Part shown: one piece after another, positions 57,477 to 64,000 of the stretch
Position numbering within the stretch: the stretch's first letter is position 1
How the letters are laid out: the number at the start of each line of letters is the position of its first letter
Source of the DNA: Nitrosospira sp. 56-18
GTDB taxonomy: Bacteria > Pseudomonadota > Gammaproteobacteria > Burkholderiales > Nitrosomonadaceae
DNA: 64,000 nucleotides
Reading direction: 5' to 3'
Assembly: GCA_001899235.1 (NCBI GenBank)
Contig: MKVR01000053.1
Location: forward strand, 1 to 64,000
The notes under the pieces: generated by a model
Told to the model about the DNA's origin: nothing
Seen by the model: only the letters and a program-made list of their open reading frames with translations
The model's database searches: none
Made by a program: the position numbers and the translations under genes

Positions 57477-58160
57477 GTGCATATACTGATTATAGAAGAC
57501 GATCCAGCCATCGCTACCAATCTCTATGATTTCCTGGAAGCGCGCGGACACAGCGTGGATGCCGCAGCGGACGGAATTACCGGATTGCATCTGGCGGTTA
57601 CGCAGCGATTCGATGGCATTCTGCTCGATCTGGGCCTGCCGGGCATGGATGGCATCACCCTCTGCCGCAAGCTGCGGCACGAGGCGGATCTCGATACTCC
57701 TGTGCTGATGCTGACTGCCCGCGATACGCTGGAGGACAAACTGAAAGGTTTCGATTGCGGCGCCGATGACTACCTAATAAAGCCGTTTGCCCTGAAAGAA
57801 GTCGAAGCGCGCCTGGTCGCCATGCACAAGCGGCATGGAGGCAAGGTCACCAGCCGCCTGCTGGAGACCGGGGATCTGTCTTTTGATCCGAAGACCTTAT
57901 CCATTCGTTTCGCTGGCGCCGCAGTCAAGCTCCCTCCCAAGTGCATTCGCCTGCTTGCGCTCATGATGGGTGAGCCCGGCCGCGTATTCAGCCGCCGCGA
58001 GCTTGAATCCGAAGTCTGGGGGGACGCCCAGGGAACCAGCGACACCTTGAGAAGCCACATGCACGAATTGCGCCGTGCGTTGAGCCGGGCTGGAGGCTAC
58101 GACCCCATAGAGACTGTTCACGGCCTGGGTTACCGCCTAGTTTCTCGTGCCCGGGCTTAA
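57477..58160 (+). CDS. OmpR-family response regulator
   Basis: The 227-residue protein has a receiver domain (Asp51 the phosphoacceptor in LLDLGLPGMDG, Lys in YLIKPF) and an OmpR winged-helix DNA-binding domain from about 130 (SRRELESEVWGDAQGTSDTLRSHMHELRRAL, HGLGYRLV). A GTG start at 57477 has GAGG upstream. It overlaps the histidine kinase gene by 14 bp. It resembles QseB/PmrA-type regulators, but the signal is unknown. Confidence 0.9.
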   Translation: MHILIIEDDPAIATNLYDFLEARGHSVDAAADGITGLHLAVTQRFDGILLDLGLPGMDGITLCRKLRHEADLDTPVLMLTARDTLEDKLKGFDCGADDYLIKPFALKEVEARLVAMHKRHGGKVTSRLLETGDLSFDPKTLSIRFAGAAVKLPPKCIRLLALMMGEPGRVFSRRELESEVWGDAQGTSDTLRSHMHELRRALSRAGGYDPIETVHGLGYRLVSRARA

Positions 58161-59415
58161 GCGCGGCCTTCGCCTGCGGGTTGCGCTGGCGTTCGCAATA
58201 TTCTGCATCATCGTCGTCGGCACGCTCGGTATCAGCCTCTATATCGCCTCCGACGACATCGAGGAGGCGCATATAGAGCAGATCATGGAAACCGAGATGG
58301 ACTATCTGCTCCAGCGCTATCGGGAAAGCGCCGATTTCGTGCCGCAGGTTGGGTCCAATCTTGAAAAGTACATTGTTCATGATCCCACCGACGAGGCCCA
58401 CCTTCCTCCCTACCTGCAGGGACTCAATTACAGGCGTCACAAAGTATTTCGCGGACCGGAGGAGATCCGGGTTGCGGTACGCCATGTCGACGGCGTAAAG
58501 TTTATCGTCGCCTACGAAATCGGACTGCATGACCAGCGCCAGCAGGAGCTGAGGCTCCTCATCGTATTATCCCTACTCTCGGTCGTAGGCGTCGCGCTGG
58601 TGGTGGGATATCTGCTTGCCGGGCTGCTCGTGAAACAGGTTACGGACCTTGCCGAGCGCGTCAGGCATCTTGCGCCGGGAGACGTGCAGGGAACAACGAT
58701 GATCCAGCCCGGCCAGGATGAGGAGGTGGCCCAGCTTGCCCATGCGCTGGATGACTACCAGAACCGGATTACGCGCATGCTGCGGCGCGAGCAGGAATTC
58801 ACCGCCAACGTCAGCCATGAATTGCGTACGCCGATAACGACAATTTTGACGAGTTGCGAGTTGCTGGTAACAGAGCCCGGTTTTTCGGAAAGGGCGCGGG
58901 TTCGCATCGGGATGATCGAGGCTGCTGCCGGCCGAATGGGCGAGCAGCTCCAGGCGCTCTTGTTCCTTGCCCGCGAGCAGGCGCTGGGCATCATGGAACC
59001 GGTAGCGCTTGCCGAGTGCGTCTATGAGGCCGTCGAGCCGGTGTGCACGGAAATCTACCGGAAGCGGCTTCTTTTCGAGGTAACGGTCGAGCCGAAAGCC
59101 GTGCTTACATTGAACCGGCAAGCGCTGCACACTGCGCTCGTCAATTTGCTGCGCAATGCCGTGCAATACACCGAGCGTGGCTTCATTCGTGTCAGTTTCA
59201 GCCAGAAACGCCTTTCAATTTCCGATTCGGGAATTGGTATCGAACCCTATTACCTGCCTTTGCTCTATGAGCGATTCTTCCGGGGATCCACTCAGGGAGA
59301 AGGGTTGGGAATCGGCCTTGCGATCGTCAAGCGCATATGCGACCACTACGGATGGATAATAGACGTGGAAAGCACGCCGGGAAAAGGTTCGACTTTCCAT
59401 ATTACGTTTCCGTAG
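58147..59415 (+). CDS. Sensor histidine kinase
   Basis: The 422-residue membrane kinase has two transmembrane segments (about 12-33 and 135-160) with a periplasmic sensor of about 100 residues, a HAMP-like linker, the phospho-acceptor His224 in TANVSHELRTPITT, and ATP-binding N and G boxes (LVNLLRNAVQY, SDSGIGIEP, GEGLGIGLAIVKRI). The GTG start at 58147 overlaps the response regulator. The sensor region resembles no ligand family I can name. The next gene down is the carbonic-anhydrase-like gene, 256 bp away. Confidence 0.9.
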   Translation: MPGLKRGLRLRVALAFAIFCIIVVGTLGISLYIASDDIEEAHIEQIMETEMDYLLQRYRESADFVPQVGSNLEKYIVHDPTDEAHLPPYLQGLNYRRHKVFRGPEEIRVAVRHVDGVKFIVAYEIGLHDQRQQELRLLIVLSLLSVVGVALVVGYLLAGLLVKQVTDLAERVRHLAPGDVQGTTMIQPGQDEEVAQLAHALDDYQNRITRMLRREQEFTANVSHELRTPITTILTSCELLVTEPGFSERARVRIGMIEAAAGRMGEQLQALLFLAREQALGIMEPVALAECVYEAVEPVCTEIYRKRLLFEVTVEPKAVLTLNRQALHTALVNLLRNAVQYTERGFIRVSFSQKRLSISDSGIGIEPYYLPLLYERFFRGSTQGEGLGIGLAIVKRICDHYGWIIDVESTPGKGSTFHITFP

Positions 59416-59671: not shown

Positions 59672-60790
59672 ATGTATACTAATGTTACCCGCTTACCGAT
59701 AGAGAAACGCATAGACTGGCTCTTCAACCTCGCTGACCGGCATGGAAATACGTTTCGCAGCCCTGAGGCGTGGCTGGCGCGCGAACGCTATCTTGCCGAA
59801 CATCCAACAGCCATTGCCGTAATGAAGTGCATGGATGGCCGCATCAATCTGCCGGTGATGACGAATACGCCACCGGGTATTCTCATGCCGTTTCGCAACC
59901 TTGGCGGTGCTTTCGATCTCGGCTGGCCTCATCTGGGCGAGGTGCTTGCTCATCATGTGCAGAACTGGGTAAGGGTGGGCCGCAGAGTCCTGTTTCTGGT
60001 TACTTACCACTATTCCAAAGGCGATCCGCATCGTGGATGCGCCGGTTTCAACTATGATACCGAAGCAGCCTATGCCCATACCCAGGTCATCCGCCGCCAG
60101 ATGCAGCAAATTTTTGGTGCAGAGCACTCAACGATTTATCCCCTTATCTGTGGTATCGAAACCGACGAGGATACGATTGTCGTTCATGGCACCAACGGTG
60201 AAAAACTGGATATGTCGCAGATCACGCCGGATGAGAGATCGACGCTGGAACCCCGTCTTGCCGCCCTGCTGCCCGACATGCCCGCCCAGATGCGGGCCGA
60301 CCTGCTGCCCTTGTTGCTTGGTAACCTCGACACTATCGCGCGGGTGCGTGAACAGGCGGCGCGTCATGAGCGGCTTCTGGATATCGAGCATCGCGAATGG
60401 ATGATCTGTGTGGGCCGTGGCTTCGACTTCCTGCATACGCCTAACCTGGCCCTGATAATCGGGCCGTACAGCCCGAACCTGGATGTACCCATCGGCAAGG
60501 CCGCCGGCATTATCGAGGGCAATATGCGCAGCGGCCGCATTCCCGATGATGGGTTCCTGCTTCTGGCCTCGGTTCCTTACATGGAGATCGGCATCGACCG
60601 GGCGCGCGCCGAGTTGAAATCCATCTTCCTGGCTCGCTTCGCTGCGGAGGTCATACGCAACGAGCGTCCGGAATTGGCTGAGAAGATGTTCATCCGTACC
60701 GCTGTGCTCGACTGGCACGCACGGACGCTCGAGACCATAGCGGAAGATGCGGCGGAAAACGATCAGGGCGATATCGCGGCATCGTTCTGA
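59672..60790 (+). CDS. Beta-carbonic-anhydrase-like protein of unusual length
   Basis: The 372-residue protein carries the beta-carbonic anhydrase active-site pattern: Cys53-x-Asp55-x-Arg57 (MKCMDGRINL), then FRNLGG at 75-80 (the RN-x-G motif), then His120-x-x-Cys123 (DPHRGCAGF). Cys53, His120 and Cys123 would bind zinc and Asp55-Arg57 form the gating pair. Beta enzymes are usually about 200-220 residues; the extra 150 C-terminal residues (GFDFLHTPNLALIIGPYSPNLD, RTAVLDWHARTLETIAED) match nothing I know. No signal peptide is present. It is convergent with NuoM-like genes. CO2 hydration or a role in carbon uptake is inference. Confidence 0.65.
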   Translation: MYTNVTRLPIEKRIDWLFNLADRHGNTFRSPEAWLARERYLAEHPTAIAVMKCMDGRINLPVMTNTPPGILMPFRNLGGAFDLGWPHLGEVLAHHVQNWVRVGRRVLFLVTYHYSKGDPHRGCAGFNYDTEAAYAHTQVIRRQMQQIFGAEHSTIYPLICGIETDEDTIVVHGTNGEKLDMSQITPDERSTLEPRLAALLPDMPAQMRADLLPLLLGNLDTIARVREQAARHERLLDIEHREWMICVGRGFDFLHTPNLALIIGPYSPNLDVPIGKAAGIIEGNMRSGRIPDDGFLLLASVPYMEIGIDRARAELKSIFLARFAAEVIRNERPELAEKMFIRTAVLDWHARTLETIAEDAAENDQGDIAASF

Positions 60791-60892
60791 TACCGGGGTT
60801 CCGGAGGCCGTGTTGACGGCGCGAGGGAATTTCAGGATGGAGATGATGGAGATGTGTCTGCGGAAGAACCTCGTCGCTCCAGGGTAGTCCGT

Positions 60893-60941
60893 TAAAAATC
60901 ATGACCAGGCAGGCTGACTAGACTAATGAGTCAGCCTGTTT
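60893..60941. terminator. Bidirectional hairpin between convergent genes
   Basis: CAGGCTGAC (60910-60918) and GTCAGCCTG (60930-60938) form a perfect 9-bp stem with an 11-nt loop. TTT follows on the plus strand, and on the minus strand a T5 run lies about 12 nt past the stem. The NuoM-like stop codon (60923) is inside the loop, so the hairpin overlaps the end of that gene. Confidence 0.65.
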
Positions 60942-62419
60942 AACCAGGATGTAGCAGCCACCCTGTTTACATCAAGGATCAGATCGGGAAAAAATCCGAA
61001 TAACAGCACTATGGATGCGGGTACGCACAGTAACCCGAATTCACGGGAACGCAAATCCATGACACGGCTCAAGTGTGCATGGATAACGGGTCCGAGGAAG
61101 GCGCGCCGCATAAATGACAGCATATAGGCTGCTCCCAGAATAGCTCCCAGCAATGCGGCGATGCCTAGTCCGGGATGGGCGTTCAGCGCGCCGAGTATCA
61201 GCAGTAGTTCCGCCGGGAATCCGCTCGTACCCGGAACGCCTATGCTGGCGAAGGCAAAAATAAAGAAAAATGTCGTCAGGCGCGGCATTATTTTTGCCAG
61301 ACCTCCCAGATGGATCAGTTCGGTGCTGCCAAGGCGATGCTGTATGAGACCCGCGATCAATATCAGGCAGCTGGCAATCAGCGTGAAATTGAGCAGTTGA
61401 AAAATTGCTCCTTGTATGCCCTGCATATTGAGTGTCGCCACGCCCACTATCACCAGGCCAACATGGCTGACACTTGCGTAAGCCAGCACGCGGCGCAAAT
61501 TGGTCTGCCGCAGGGCGATCATGGCGGCGTAGATGAAAGTGATGGCTCCTAATATTCCCAATACCCAGGCATATTTCGCTGACGCGTCCGGGGCCAGCGG
61601 CATGGCGAAGCGCAGCATGCCGAAAGCACCCAATTTCAAGCCTACCAGCAGCGCCGTCAACTGTGACGGGGCCTCTACCGCAGTGGTAGGCAGCCAGGTA
61701 TGAAATGGCACCAGCGGGGCTTTGACCGCGAAACCGGTGACCAACAGCAGGAAAATGATTTTTTGCAGGTCTTCAGAAATGGGCGTATTCAACAGTACGG
61801 GAAAGCTGAAGGAAAGATCCAGCGGAACGTTGCCGCCCGTCTGCATGGCGTGATTGACCCCAAGCATGATAAGGGCAAAAAGCAGCGGCACGCCGCTGAA
61901 CAGCATATAAAGCATATATTTCATCGCTGCGCCCCGGCGATCGGGACCTGCTCCCCACAATCCGATCAGAAAGAAAATAGGCGGCAGTATCAATTCCCAG
62001 AAAAGAAAGAACAGCATCATGTCGAGTGCAACGAACACGCCCATGGTGCCTCCCTCCATAGCGAGCAGAAGGGCAAAATGGAAACGGGTCAGGTGCTGAA
62101 CGGATTTCCACGAAGCGATAACCGCAACCAGCGTCAGCAACGCCGATGCCGGCAGGAACAATACTGAAATTCCATCGACACCGATCAGGAACAATATATT
62201 GAGGCTGGGTATCCATGTGTGCCGCTCAATCAGCTGGAAGCTGCTGCCGTTCGCGGCATCAAATAAATTCACCACCACCAGGGTTACGATGAGTTCAAGG
62301 CCGGCGATCGCCAACGCAACCCGTCTGGCGATATGGATGTCCTGGATAAGGCCGACCGCAATGCCGCCGGCCAGGGGCAGGAGAATGATCAGGCTCAGTA
62401 TCGGAAAATTTTCAATCAT
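60923..62419 (-). CDS. NuoM-like proton-translocating membrane subunit, second in operon
   Basis: This 498-residue protein belongs to the NuoM/NuoL/Mrp antiporter family. It has about 14 membrane segments. The conserved Glu is in FFLFWELILPPIFFLIGLWG and the channel Lys in GFAVKAPLVPFHTWLP, with the broken-helix Lys in LLVGLKLGAFG. Its start overlaps the stop of the preceding NuoM-like gene by 8 bp. In a standard complex I operon nuoN would follow, but here the operon ends and meets the carbonic-anhydrase-like gene head-on. It may be a complex I duplicate or part of a separate proton-coupled module. Confidence 0.85.
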   Translation of the reverse strand: MIENFPILSLIILLPLAGGIAVGLIQDIHIARRVALAIAGLELIVTLVVVNLFDAANGSSFQLIERHTWIPSLNILFLIGVDGISVLFLPASALLTLVAVIASWKSVQHLTRFHFALLLAMEGGTMGVFVALDMMLFFLFWELILPPIFFLIGLWGAGPDRRGAAMKYMLYMLFSGVPLLFALIMLGVNHAMQTGGNVPLDLSFSFPVLLNTPISEDLQKIIFLLLVTGFAVKAPLVPFHTWLPTTAVEAPSQLTALLVGLKLGAFGMLRFAMPLAPDASAKYAWVLGILGAITFIYAAMIALRQTNLRRVLAYASVSHVGLVIVGVATLNMQGIQGAIFQLLNFTLIASCLILIAGLIQHRLGSTELIHLGGLAKIMPRLTTFFFIFAFASIGVPGTSGFPAELLLILGALNAHPGLGIAALLGAILGAAYMLSFMRRAFLGPVIHAHLSRVMDLRSREFGLLCVPASIVLLFGFFPDLILDVNRVAATSWLNRLTH

Positions 62420-63974
62420 GCCTGGCGTCCGGTGCGGCTGCGGGCTTATGGGGGCCGTTCTTGGGTTTATGGTAATAGGCGCTCATTCCGGTCGGATCTC
62501 TTTCGATATAGTTGAGCCATGGGGCCGTATTGAAGCCGGTCCCGATGAGCAGCGAGCAGACGGTAATAATAATGGCGGGTTCCATCCTGACCCGATACTG
62601 ACGAGGTTTCTGGGGTTGAAAGGCGCGTCTAGGGGTCGTCATGAATATCCGCTGGAAAGCCAGCAGAAGGAAGGCTGCCGCCAGGACATTGCCTACGAGA
62701 ATAGCGATTGCGAGCAGCCACCCGTATTCCTCGATAGTTCCTTCGATCAGCAGGTGAGCCGCATCGAATCCGGGTGTTCCGGGCATGACCATGGTGCTTA
62801 GCGCAGCGATGAAAAAAAGCAGCGCAATGCCGATATTCGTATCAAAAAGTCCGCCCAGGCGTGGAGTAAATACGGTTCGTGTGCGCTCGTAAACCAGGCC
62901 GACGCTAAAGAGCATGCCAGCCGATGCCAGGCCCCATGCCAGGGAGAGGAATATGCTGCCATTCAGCCCATGTTCGTTGAAACAGAAAAGGCCGATGACC
63001 AGCATTCCGGCGTGGCTGATAACAGAAAATGCGAGCAGCCGCCGCACATTGATCTGCATCAGGGCGAGCAGCGCGCCGTAAAAGATGGTGATGAGTCCCA
63101 GTGAGACCACAAACCCGGCCCATTGCTCGGCGGCTTCCGTCACTACCGGCAGAATGAAACGCGCTGTCCCATAGATACCCAGTTTCAAGCCTACGACCAA
63201 GGCGATTACACTGGCTACTGCGCTCTGTTCAGCCAGTATCGGCAGCCAGCCATGAAATGGAAACAGTGGAATGCGAACGGCAAAGCCGAAAAACAGAAGA
63301 ATGAATATCAATGTTCCGTTCTGCAAAAAGGCTTTGTTGTGCTTCAGTGTCAACCAGTCGAAACTCACGGGATGCCCCGAATCCTGCAATCCGAAGCCCA
63401 GCAGCAGAAATCCAGTCAGTGTCATCAGCAGCGCCCAGCCCCAATATTTCAGCAGGTGGGCGATCACCCATAGTTTTTTATGTCCTGTGCCACTGTGGAT
63501 CGTGAGCAAAATCACCGGCACCAGTTCCAGAAAGGTCCAGAGCCAGAACTGCGCGATATTCAGCGCCGTAAACGCGCCGATCAGGATGGCTTCGTAGCCA
63601 AGGAGGCAGGCAAGGAATTTCCAGTCGAAGGTCCGGCGGGTGGTTGCCTTGTATACGAGAACCAGCGTGACCAATATCGTCGTGAGAGGGATGAACAGGA
63701 CACTCAGGCCGTCAACCCCGACGCTGTAATAGGTGAAGCCGAAAAAACGCTCCTGCTCGGCGAACTGGATTCCGGCTTTTTCCGGATCGAACAGCGACAA
63801 CATATAAAAGCTCAGGAATAAATCGAGCAGGGTGGCGGCGAAGCCGAGCGTGACGGCAATAGACGTGGAACGCAGGATGAGAATAGCGGCCATGGCCGCC
63901 ATCGGAATGAGCACGAGCGTGGTCAGCAACGGAAATGTCACTGATTCCTGCCAGAATGCGATATTGGTTTCCAT
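62412..63974 (-). CDS. NuoM-like membrane subunit, first of the visible pair
   Basis: The 520-residue protein has the same family fold with about 14 membrane segments. The conserved Glu lies in WTFLELVPVILLTI. At the place of the channel Lys it reads GFAVRIPLFPFHGWLP, so Arg replaces Lys; the later LVVGLKLGIYG Lys is kept. The C-terminus has a hydrophilic tail (SAYYHKPKNGPHKPAAAP). Its start overlaps the stop of an upstream frame (TGATG), so at least one more gene precedes it beyond the window. The divergent channel residue suggests a role apart from standard NuoM. Confidence 0.82.
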   Translation of the reverse strand: METNIAFWQESVTFPLLTTLVLIPMAAMAAILILRSTSIAVTLGFAATLLDLFLSFYMLSLFDPEKAGIQFAEQERFFGFTYYSVGVDGLSVLFIPLTTILVTLVLVYKATTRRTFDWKFLACLLGYEAILIGAFTALNIAQFWLWTFLELVPVILLTIHSGTGHKKLWVIAHLLKYWGWALLMTLTGFLLLGFGLQDSGHPVSFDWLTLKHNKAFLQNGTLIFILLFFGFAVRIPLFPFHGWLPILAEQSAVASVIALVVGLKLGIYGTARFILPVVTEAAEQWAGFVVSLGLITIFYGALLALMQINVRRLLAFSVISHAGMLVIGLFCFNEHGLNGSIFLSLAWGLASAGMLFSVGLVYERTRTVFTPRLGGLFDTNIGIALLFFIAALSTMVMPGTPGFDAAHLLIEGTIEEYGWLLAIAILVGNVLAAAFLLLAFQRIFMTTPRRAFQPQKPRQYRVRMEPAIIITVCSLLIGTGFNTAPWLNYIERDPTGMSAYYHKPKNGPHKPAAAPDARHD

Positions 63975-64000
63975 CAGCGTTTCATAGCGCGACCAGCAAT
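63974..64000 (-). CDS. Partial CDS, C-terminal end only
   Basis: A frame entering from the right edge ends IAGRAMKR with TGA at 63976-63974, overlapping the next ATG as TGATG. Only nine codons are visible. By position it is probably the upstream operon member, possibly a NuoL-like subunit, but this cannot be seen. Confidence 0.4.
   Translation of the reverse strand: MAGRAMKR

What the first reader, a model, noticed from the sequence alone, without database searches (positions are those of the whole stretch)
59672..64000. Carbonic-anhydrase-like protein next to paired NuoM-like subunits: a possible inorganic carbon module
Seen: Cys53-x-Asp55-x-Arg57, FRNLGG and His120-x-x-Cys123 in a 372-residue protein, and two overlapping NuoM-like genes converging on it. 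Known: DAB carbon pumps pair a beta-carbonic-anhydrase-like subunit (DabA) with a NuoL/M-like subunit (DabB), and cyanobacterial NDH-1MS pairs Cup proteins with NdhD/F. Inferred: this may be a further variant serving the RuBisCO encoded 26 kb away. The protein is far shorter than DabA and has an unassigned C-terminal half.
Basis: partly seen in the sequence, partly recalled or inferred. Interest (0 to 1): 0.75.

Follow-up and report, generated by a model that had tools for sequence, protein, structure and literature searches.

The report
Carbonic anhydrase beside enlarged CO2 pump
An ammonia-oxidising bacterium carries a free-standing relative of the carboxysome carbonic anhydrase next to genes for an enlarged version of a known CO2-capturing membrane complex, and the same pairing recurs in distant bacteria, including some that have RuBisCO but no carboxysome shell genes.

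Summary

The linkage is in 10 of 10 family genomes that have CsoSCA2, and in 14 of 80 related loci (2 of them among those 10). The cluster is a distinct DAB subclass. NuoM2 has lost three of four proton-path residues (33 of 33). DabA carries His where DabA2-type proteins have Leu658 (37 of 37, against 72 of 75 others with Leu). Its genomes have RuBisCO (17 of 19) but no shell proteins (0 of 19). In two other genomes an LCIB-like carbonic anhydrase fills the same slot. I read this as a carboxysome-free inorganic-carbon module; the mechanism is inferred. Most CsoSCA2 genes (48 of 62 decidable loci) stand alone, which is the main evidence against an obligate link.

The parts
59672..60790 (+). CsoSCA2-type beta-carbonic anhydrase, 372 aa; predicted zinc ligands C53, H113, C123; dyad D55/R57; C-terminal CsoSCA-like second domain
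60923..62419 (-). NuoM3-like antiporter subunit, 498 aa, four proton-path residues kept; converges on the carbonic anhydrase gene (132-bp gap)
   Evidence: PF00361 2.6e-62; residues kept in 30 of 30 distinct homologues, this one included
62412..63974 (-). NuoM2-like subunit, 520 aa, degenerate: TM5 Glu lost, TM7 Lys to Arg, TM12 Glu lost
   Evidence: PF00361 2e-35; same loss in 33 of 33 distinct homologues, this one included
63982..64000 (-). 3' end of the NuoL-like DabB gene (543 aa; contig C53 63982-65613). The cluster goes on past the window, in contig numbering: DabA 65618-68902 (-), 1094 aa, zinc site C566/D568/R570/H757/C772 and His895 at the DabA2 Leu658 position; NuoM1 68905-70380 (-), 491 aa; then SbtA-like 71224-72201 (+) and SulP-like 74790-76256 (+)
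   Evidence: PF00662/PF00361, PF10070 841 bits, PF00361 4.5e-69, PF05982 3.6e-107, PF00916 1.4e-24; ORFs; DabA2 9rd0 E 6.9e-78; residues
31539..33008 (-). RuBisCO large subunit, 489 aa, the only match in the genome

Best explanation
The locus encodes a carboxysome-free inorganic-carbon module. A five-subunit membrane complex (DabA, NuoL-like DabB, NuoM1, degenerate NuoM2, NuoM3) couples proton flow to CO2 hydration at DabA, holding or raising cytoplasmic bicarbonate. CsoSCA2, a soluble cytoplasmic beta-carbonic anhydrase, then interconverts bicarbonate and CO2 so that the unencapsulated RuBisCO is supplied with CO2, while CO2 that leaks towards the membrane is re-captured by the complex. Shown here: families, gene order, residues, predicted fold, absence of shell genes. 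Inferred: that the five cluster genes form one complex, the direction of proton flow, enzyme activity of both carbonic anhydrases, their location in the cell, and their working together.
For: CsoSCA2 identity and predicted fold with all catalytic residues in 102 of 102 rows. DabA with the complete zinc site. Conserved linkage: all 10 family genomes with CsoSCA2 (of 37 family genomes searched) have it beside the cluster, convergent in 4 and co-directional as the next gene in 6; 14 of 80 loci in a wider scan (12 outside those 10 genomes), with DAB proteins only 36-60% identical outside the genus; 3 of 7 CsoSCA2 genomes in a class sample of 370. On the CsoSCA2 tree the linkage label needs at least 6 changes when undecided loci are set aside. 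The same slot holds an LCIB-like protein in 2 further loci. Genomes with the five-gene type are enriched for CsoSCA2 or LCIB (8 of 19 against 11 of 351, p 5e-7), have RuBisCO in 17 of 19 and a BMC shell in 0 of 19. Neighbouring SbtA and SulP.
Against: 48 of 62 decidable CsoSCA2 loci of the wider scan have no DAB cluster alongside, and 4 of 7 in the class sample have none, so CsoSCA2 can work without it. In 11 of 16 five-gene clusters with NuoM3 visible no carbonic anhydrase was recognised in the next slot. A free cytoplasmic carbonic anhydrase short-circuits bicarbonate accumulation in a carboxysome-bearing cyanobacterium (review passages, PMC10880623). No expression, binding or activity data. 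The Fisher tests were made after the pattern was seen, and the genomes are related; the RuBisCO and shell rates of the other genomes were not measured.
Confidence: 0.6

Rival explanations
1. The genes are neighbours in an inorganic-carbon island but work apart: CsoSCA2 is a general cytoplasmic carbonic anhydrase (for example for anaplerotic bicarbonate), and the DAB complex is a separate uptake system.
For: 48 of 62 decidable CsoSCA2 loci are solitary, many in Accumulibacter and Dechloromonas relatives. In the window's own lineage the genes are convergent, so they cannot share one promoter. SbtA and SulP are also close by without being subunits.
Against: Linkage in two orientations and several lineages, and a second carbonic anhydrase family in the same slot.
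Confidence: 0.25
2. CsoSCA2 is a docked, stoichiometric subunit of the enlarged DAB complex, giving it a second catalytic site that removes or delivers CO2/bicarbonate at the membrane.
For: Conserved adjacency; CsoSCA2 lacks the N-terminal part that binds RuBisCO in CsoSCA (PMC9164163 section 6), so another partner is possible; a degenerate NuoM2 could be a docking or spacer subunit.
Against: 11 of 16 clusters lack a recognised carbonic anhydrase in the next slot and most CsoSCA2 loci lack a cluster, so neither needs the other. No multi-chain prediction was possible.
Confidence: 0.1
3. The five-gene complex runs the other way, or reversibly: carbonic anhydrase chemistry at a canonical-like DabA site drives or balances ion pumping, so the cluster is an energy or pH device rather than a carbon pump (compare the suggestion in PMC5700660).
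For: His replaces the Leu658 of DabA2 in 37 of 37; the missing Gln/His was examined in DabA2 as a possible reason for its lack of spontaneous activity (PMC13144422 section 9). Two antiporter-like NuoM subunits with all four residues.
Against: In DabA2, Leu658Gln did not give in-vitro activity, and Gly, Ala or Asn at 658 did not impair in-vivo activity, so one residue does not set direction. RuBisCO in 17 of 19 genomes with the cluster type.
Confidence: 0.1
4. The NuoM-like genes are part of an ordinary complex I operon and the carbonic anhydrase gene is an unrelated neighbour.
For: NuoM family scores are high.
Against: The five cluster genes are packed with gaps of at most 7 bases, with a DabA gene among them; two separate nuo-type antiporter sets lie on C12 and C30; conserved order.
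Confidence: 0.01

Closest known systems
CsoSCA2, non-carboxysomal CsoSCA, second (more truncated) variant (PMC9164163)
   Same: Short N-terminal region, active plus defunct domain, all catalytic residues, found outside carboxysome loci; Nitrosomonas oligotropha is among its examples.
   Different: Section 6 and the passages seen name no partner; a word search of that paper for DAC, DabA and PF10070 gave zero hits. Here it is tied to a DAB cluster.
DAB2 / DAC, vectorial carbonic anhydrase DabA2-DabB2 (PMC13144422; PDB 9rd0)
   Same: DabA zinc-site residues and a NuoL-like partner.
   Different: NuoL follows DabA, whereas it precedes DabA in the 70 Leu-type loci; three extra NuoM-like genes; His instead of Leu658; genomes without shell proteins.
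COGNAT 'clade C' ybcC operons (PMC5700660, passages seen)
   Same: DabA upstream of NuoL, frequently with NuoM and a SulP transporter; multi-subunit ion pumping was proposed there.
   Different: No carbonic anhydrase partner, no residue-level split and no carboxysome correlation in the passages seen.
Cyanobacterial NDH-1MS with CupA/B (recalled, not tested)
   Same: Antiporter-like subunits coupled to CO2 hydration.
   Different: Here no NDH-1 core genes lie between the cluster genes; DabA is the catalytic candidate.
LCIB/C-type carbonic anhydrases (PF18599)
   Same: An LCIB-like protein occupies the same slot in two genomes.
   Different: Another family from CsoSCA2; its match is weak (28.4 bits, cut-off 25; the second copy only by 55% identity to the first).

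Membership tests
CsoSCA2 / CsoSCA | Zinc ligands Cys/His/Cys and Asp-Arg dyad | tested here: met
   C53, H113, C123, D55, R57 identical in 102 of 102 rows including 6 carboxysomal ones
CsoSCA2 / CsoSCA | Two-domain CsoSCA fold (catalytic plus defunct second domain) | tested here: met
carboxysomal CsoSCA (TIGR02701) | Curated equivalog score and a carboxysome locus | tested here: not met
   41.6 bits against 241; no BMC shell gene in the genome
DabA (PF10070) | PF10070 match of the 372-aa protein | tested here: not met
   Not listed at E up to 1
DAC/DAB complex (the neighbouring cluster) | DabA with zinc site next to a NuoL-like DabB | tested here: met
   841 bits, residues C566/D568/H757/C772, NuoL adjacent
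DAC/DAB of the DabA2 kind | Leu at position 658 and NuoL upstream | tested here: not met
   His895 and NuoL downstream; 70 of 70 NuoL-upstream rows have Leu, 38 of 38 NuoL-downstream rows have His, 7 rows unassigned
DAC/DAB complex | PMF-dependent CO2 uptake | not testable with these tools
   needs expression
Respiratory complex I (nuo) | Co-located nuo core genes | tested here: not met
   Cluster genes are packed with gaps of at most 7 bases, families; nuo-type antiporter genes on C12 and C30. ORFs upstream of NuoM1 other than SbtA and SulP were not scanned
LCIB/C carbonic anhydrase (proteins in the same slot of G407, G174) | PF18599 match above cut-off | tested here: inconclusive
   28.4 bits for L169 as ORF, 22.3 bits in the genome search; L168 none but 55% identical; no relevant PDB match for L169

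The most novel reading that the evidence does not exclude
The NuoM-DabA-NuoL-NuoM-NuoM cluster encodes a separate class of proton-coupled carbonic anhydrase machine: four antiporter-like subunits, one inert, and a DabA site closer to a true beta-carbonic anhydrase. With an interchangeable soluble carbonic anhydrase (CsoSCA2 or LCIB-like) it forms a CO2-concentrating or CO2-recapture mechanism that works without carboxysomes.
Probability: 0.35. Interest if true: 0.85.

Novelty: new variant of a known kind. Interest (0 to 1): 0.62.

Why it matters
CsoSCA2 has been reported as widespread with unknown purpose (PMC9164163, section 6), and how RuBisCO autotrophs without carboxysomes obtain CO2 is not settled. 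The linkage names a testable partner for CsoSCA2, splits DAC complexes into two classes by gene order and an active-site residue, and points to a carboxysome-free carbon supply in ammonia oxidisers. The same cluster is in Thiodiazotropha symbionts, whose shell genes I did not test.

Tried and rejected
Considered and rejected: the 372-aa protein as a short DabA (no PF10070 hit at E up to 1). The NuoM pair as nuo genes. His120 as zinc ligand. The protein as a carboxysome component of this genome (no PF00936).

Results that weaken the story. Holding the ten family CsoSCA2 proteins as one clade was not rejected (AU p 0.167), so I do not claim that the carbonic anhydrase was replaced, although two subtypes (the second 39-43% identical to the window protein) sit in two orientations beside DAB clusters whose proteins are 59-78% identical. 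The His/Leu split follows one deep DabA split (tree with only three NuoL-first rows), so it is one event, not 108 independent ones. LCIB membership is weak. The terminator scan found none between the convergent genes. The PDB search of one LCIB-like protein found nothing relevant. Word searches for a published link between CsoSCA2 and DAC, or for DAC in ammonia oxidisers, showed none in the listings and passages seen; they cover only open-licence PMC papers, and searches listed 15 of 142 and 12 of 130 papers.

Counts and dropped rows. Class sample: 96 of 370 genomes have DabA; I looked at at least one DabA locus in 82 of these 96 (and the own locus). The 14 not looked at count as not five-gene, as do the three with a fused 1048-1052-aa NuoL-like protein (G120, G238, G396). 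Of the 19 genomes counted as five-gene, 16 show the cluster through NuoM3 (in G266 NuoM1 is cut by the contig end), 2 are cut by contig ends (G107, G340), and G349 shows NuoM1-DabA with no NuoL recognised after it in about 6 kb. G174 counts as without LCIB because one search did not list it. In the slot survey, 8 of the 11 clusters without a recognised carbonic anhydrase had the next ORF scanned with Pfam; L162, L165 and L173 were checked only by blastp against CsoSCA2, LCIB-like and beta-CA queries. The residue counts (29, 35, 32, 33) included L052 and L053, copies of L017 and L019; the counts given are those without them. The 102-row tree labelled 18 undecided loci as not linked and gave 7 changes; with these set aside it is 6, and 7 if L129 (6 kb gap) counts as not linked. 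Alignment A1 holds 11 of the 12 proteins (G029 left out); A2 holds the window protein and 32 of the 80 loci. Those 80 are the best of 474 that encode a relative; 18 of the 80 were too short to decide. In the 14 linked loci DabA is visible in 13; in L129 the stretch ends before it. LCIB in G091, G145, G253 and G402 is in the same genome but not on the fetched stretch.
Full report

Known family. PMC9164163 (section 6 read) calls such proteins CsoSCA2 and describes a strongly N-truncated variant outside carboxysome loci, with function and partners open. The term CsoSCA2 occurs in three papers of the library, one of them on an unrelated plant gene family. A word search of PMC9164163 for DAC, DabA and PF10070 gave zero hits.

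What lies next to it. The window is C53:1-64000 of a 125,868-base contig. Past the edge the minus strand continues with NuoL-like (543 aa, 63982-65613), DabA (1094 aa, 65618-68902, PF10070 841 bits) and NuoM-like (491 aa, 68905-70380) genes, then SbtA-like (71224-72201) and SulP-like (74790-76256) genes on the plus strand. The two NuoM-like genes in the window are thus the end of a NuoM1-DabA-NuoL-NuoM2-NuoM3 cluster. The genome's nuo-type antiporter genes are on C12 and C30. It has one RuBisCO match and no BMC shell match. Two relatives in its genus have contigs of the same length as Nitrosovibrio tenuis Nv1 and Nitrosospira sp. NpAV, so the host is inferred to be an ammonia oxidiser of that group.

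Conservation. Of 61 genomes searched, 12 encode the protein; 10 of these are among the 37 of its own family (5 of 23 in the genus) and 2 are in other families of the order. All 10 family members have it beside NuoM3. In 4 it is convergent (85-100% identical to the window protein) and in 6 it is the co-directional next gene (39-43% identical). In G029 the contig starts at NuoM3 and DabA lies on another contig; in G023 the contig starts inside DabA; in G021 and G032 the fetched stretch cut NuoM1. The two order-level carriers (G050, G052) have no DabA. In the genome collection, 14 of the best 80 loci carry the same convergent cluster: Nitrosovibrio and Nitrosospira (two loci, the same genomes as G010 and G014), and twelve from Rhodocyclaceae, Hydrogenophilales, Thiodiazotropha and other gammaproteobacteria. 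The DAB proteins are only 36-60% identical outside the genus, and the gap to NuoM3 is 10-880 bp in 13 and 6.0 kb in one. 48 loci have CsoSCA2 without the cluster and 18 are too short to decide. On the CsoSCA2 tree the linkage label needs at least 6 changes when the undecided loci are set aside.

A class-wide sample. Of 370 genomes, 7 have clear CsoSCA2 (above 300 bits) and 96 have DabA. I examined at least one DabA locus in 82 of the 96. Two layouts dominate: NuoL before DabA, and NuoM-DabA-NuoL-NuoM-NuoM (counted in 19 genomes including this one; 16 through NuoM3, 2 cut by contig ends, 1 with no NuoL recognised). CsoSCA2 lies beside DabA in 3 of 7 genomes, each time at the end of the five-gene cluster. 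Carboxysomal CsoSCA (509-543 aa) lies near NuoL-first DabA in six loci. In two other five-gene clusters the gene after NuoM3 is LCIB-like (28.4 bits for one; the other is 55% identical to it). Of 16 clusters with NuoM3 visible, 5 have a recognised carbonic anhydrase there and 11 do not. By genome, the five-gene type is enriched for CsoSCA2 (3 of 19 against 4 of 351, p 0.0035), LCIB (5 of 19 against 7 of 351, p 1.3e-4) or either (8 of 19 against 11 of 351, p 5e-7); these tests were made after seeing the pattern and ignore relatedness. RuBisCO is present in 17 of the 19 and BMC shell genes in 0 of 19; among 18 genomes with CsoSCA2 (12, 6 further), 18 have RuBisCO and 1 (G150) has shell genes. 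I did not measure the RuBisCO or shell rate in the other genomes of the sample.

Anatomy of the membrane cluster. Using the own NuoM1 as reference, the TM5 Glu, TM7 Lys, TM8 Lys and TM12 Glu (assigned from motif and recalled complex I knowledge) are kept in 27 of 27 NuoM1 and 30 of 30 NuoM3. In 33 of 33 NuoM2 the TM5 Glu is absent, TM7 is Arg, TM8 Lys is kept and the TM12 Glu is Ala, Val or Ile. NuoL keeps Glu and Lys and has His at the TM8 column in 31 of 31 (recounted without copies). NuoM2 therefore looks like a conserved but changed or inert channel.

DabA active site. The DabA2 structure paper reports that Leu658, where beta-carbonic anhydrases have Gln or His, is strictly conserved in 150 DabA2 homologues, and that changing it did not by itself give in-vitro activity or impair in-vivo activity (PMC13144422, section 9 read). 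Here the aligned residue is His895. It is His in 37 of 37 five-gene-type DabA and 3 of 3 variants, Leu in 72 of 75 others. By gene order, 70 of 70 with NuoL upstream have Leu and 38 of 38 with NuoL downstream have His; 7 rows (5 His, 2 Leu) could not be assigned. The zinc-site residues are kept in all 118 rows. The five-gene DabA form one side of a fully supported branch (41-row tree), so this is one old split. That His restores ordinary carbonic anhydrase chemistry is a guess.

Mechanism. Proposed by others for DAB2: PMF-driven one-way CO2 hydration (PMC13144422 abstract). Proposed for multi-NuoM operons: several ions per turnover (PMC5700660 passages). My inference: more coupling sites allow a steeper or lower-PMF drive, and a soluble carbonic anhydrase feeds unencapsulated RuBisCO from the bicarbonate pool while the membrane complex recaptures leaking CO2. 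The main objection, short-circuiting by a free cytoplasmic carbonic anhydrase, was shown in a carboxysome-bearing cyanobacterium (PMC10880623 passages) and may not hold where there is no carboxysome. The solitary CsoSCA2 in most loci shows that the link is not obligate.

Verdict. The specific reading (a short DabA-like partner of the NuoM pair) is wrong. The protein family is known. The DAB-CsoSCA2 linkage, the residue split and the second carbonic anhydrase family in the same slot were not found in print in the searches listed.

Noticed in passing
contig C53 71224-76773 (L015 13224-18773): SbtA-like and SulP-like transporters and a universal-stress-like protein (the last named from recall) follow the cluster; SbtA-like genes also precede NuoM1 in G026 and G035, and a homologue of the universal-stress-like gene follows CsoSCA2 in G016.
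   Followed up: partly
G003, G006, G007, G008, G012, G013, G017, G019, G020 (same genus): These nine genus members carry a shorter DabA (open frame 922-942 aa) and no CsoSCA2. In G003 and G007 the layout is DabA-NuoL-SulP, again with His at the Leu658 position.
   Followed up: partly
L175 (G120), L176 (G238), L180 (G396): A 1048-1052 aa NuoL-like protein lies near a His-type DabA; the one scanned (L175) has two stretches of PF00361, suggesting fused antiporter subunits.
   Followed up: partly
genome contigs C12, C30, C52: Two separate nuo-type antiporter sets and a further pair of PF00361 genes on C52, one in a 1010-aa frame, possibly Mrp-like.
   Followed up: no
window 57477-59415: A response regulator and histidine kinase pair (judged from sequence, not scanned) lies directly upstream of the carbonic anhydrase gene and might regulate it.
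   Followed up: no
L172 (G349), L268 (G416), L270 (G124): His-type DabA genes with no recognisable NuoL beside them in the fetched stretch.
   Followed up: no
L017-L019 versus L022-L027: Two CsoSCA2 subtypes (the second 39-43% identical to the window protein) occupy the same slot in opposite orientations beside related DAB clusters; a single origin was not rejected (p 0.167).
   Followed up: partly
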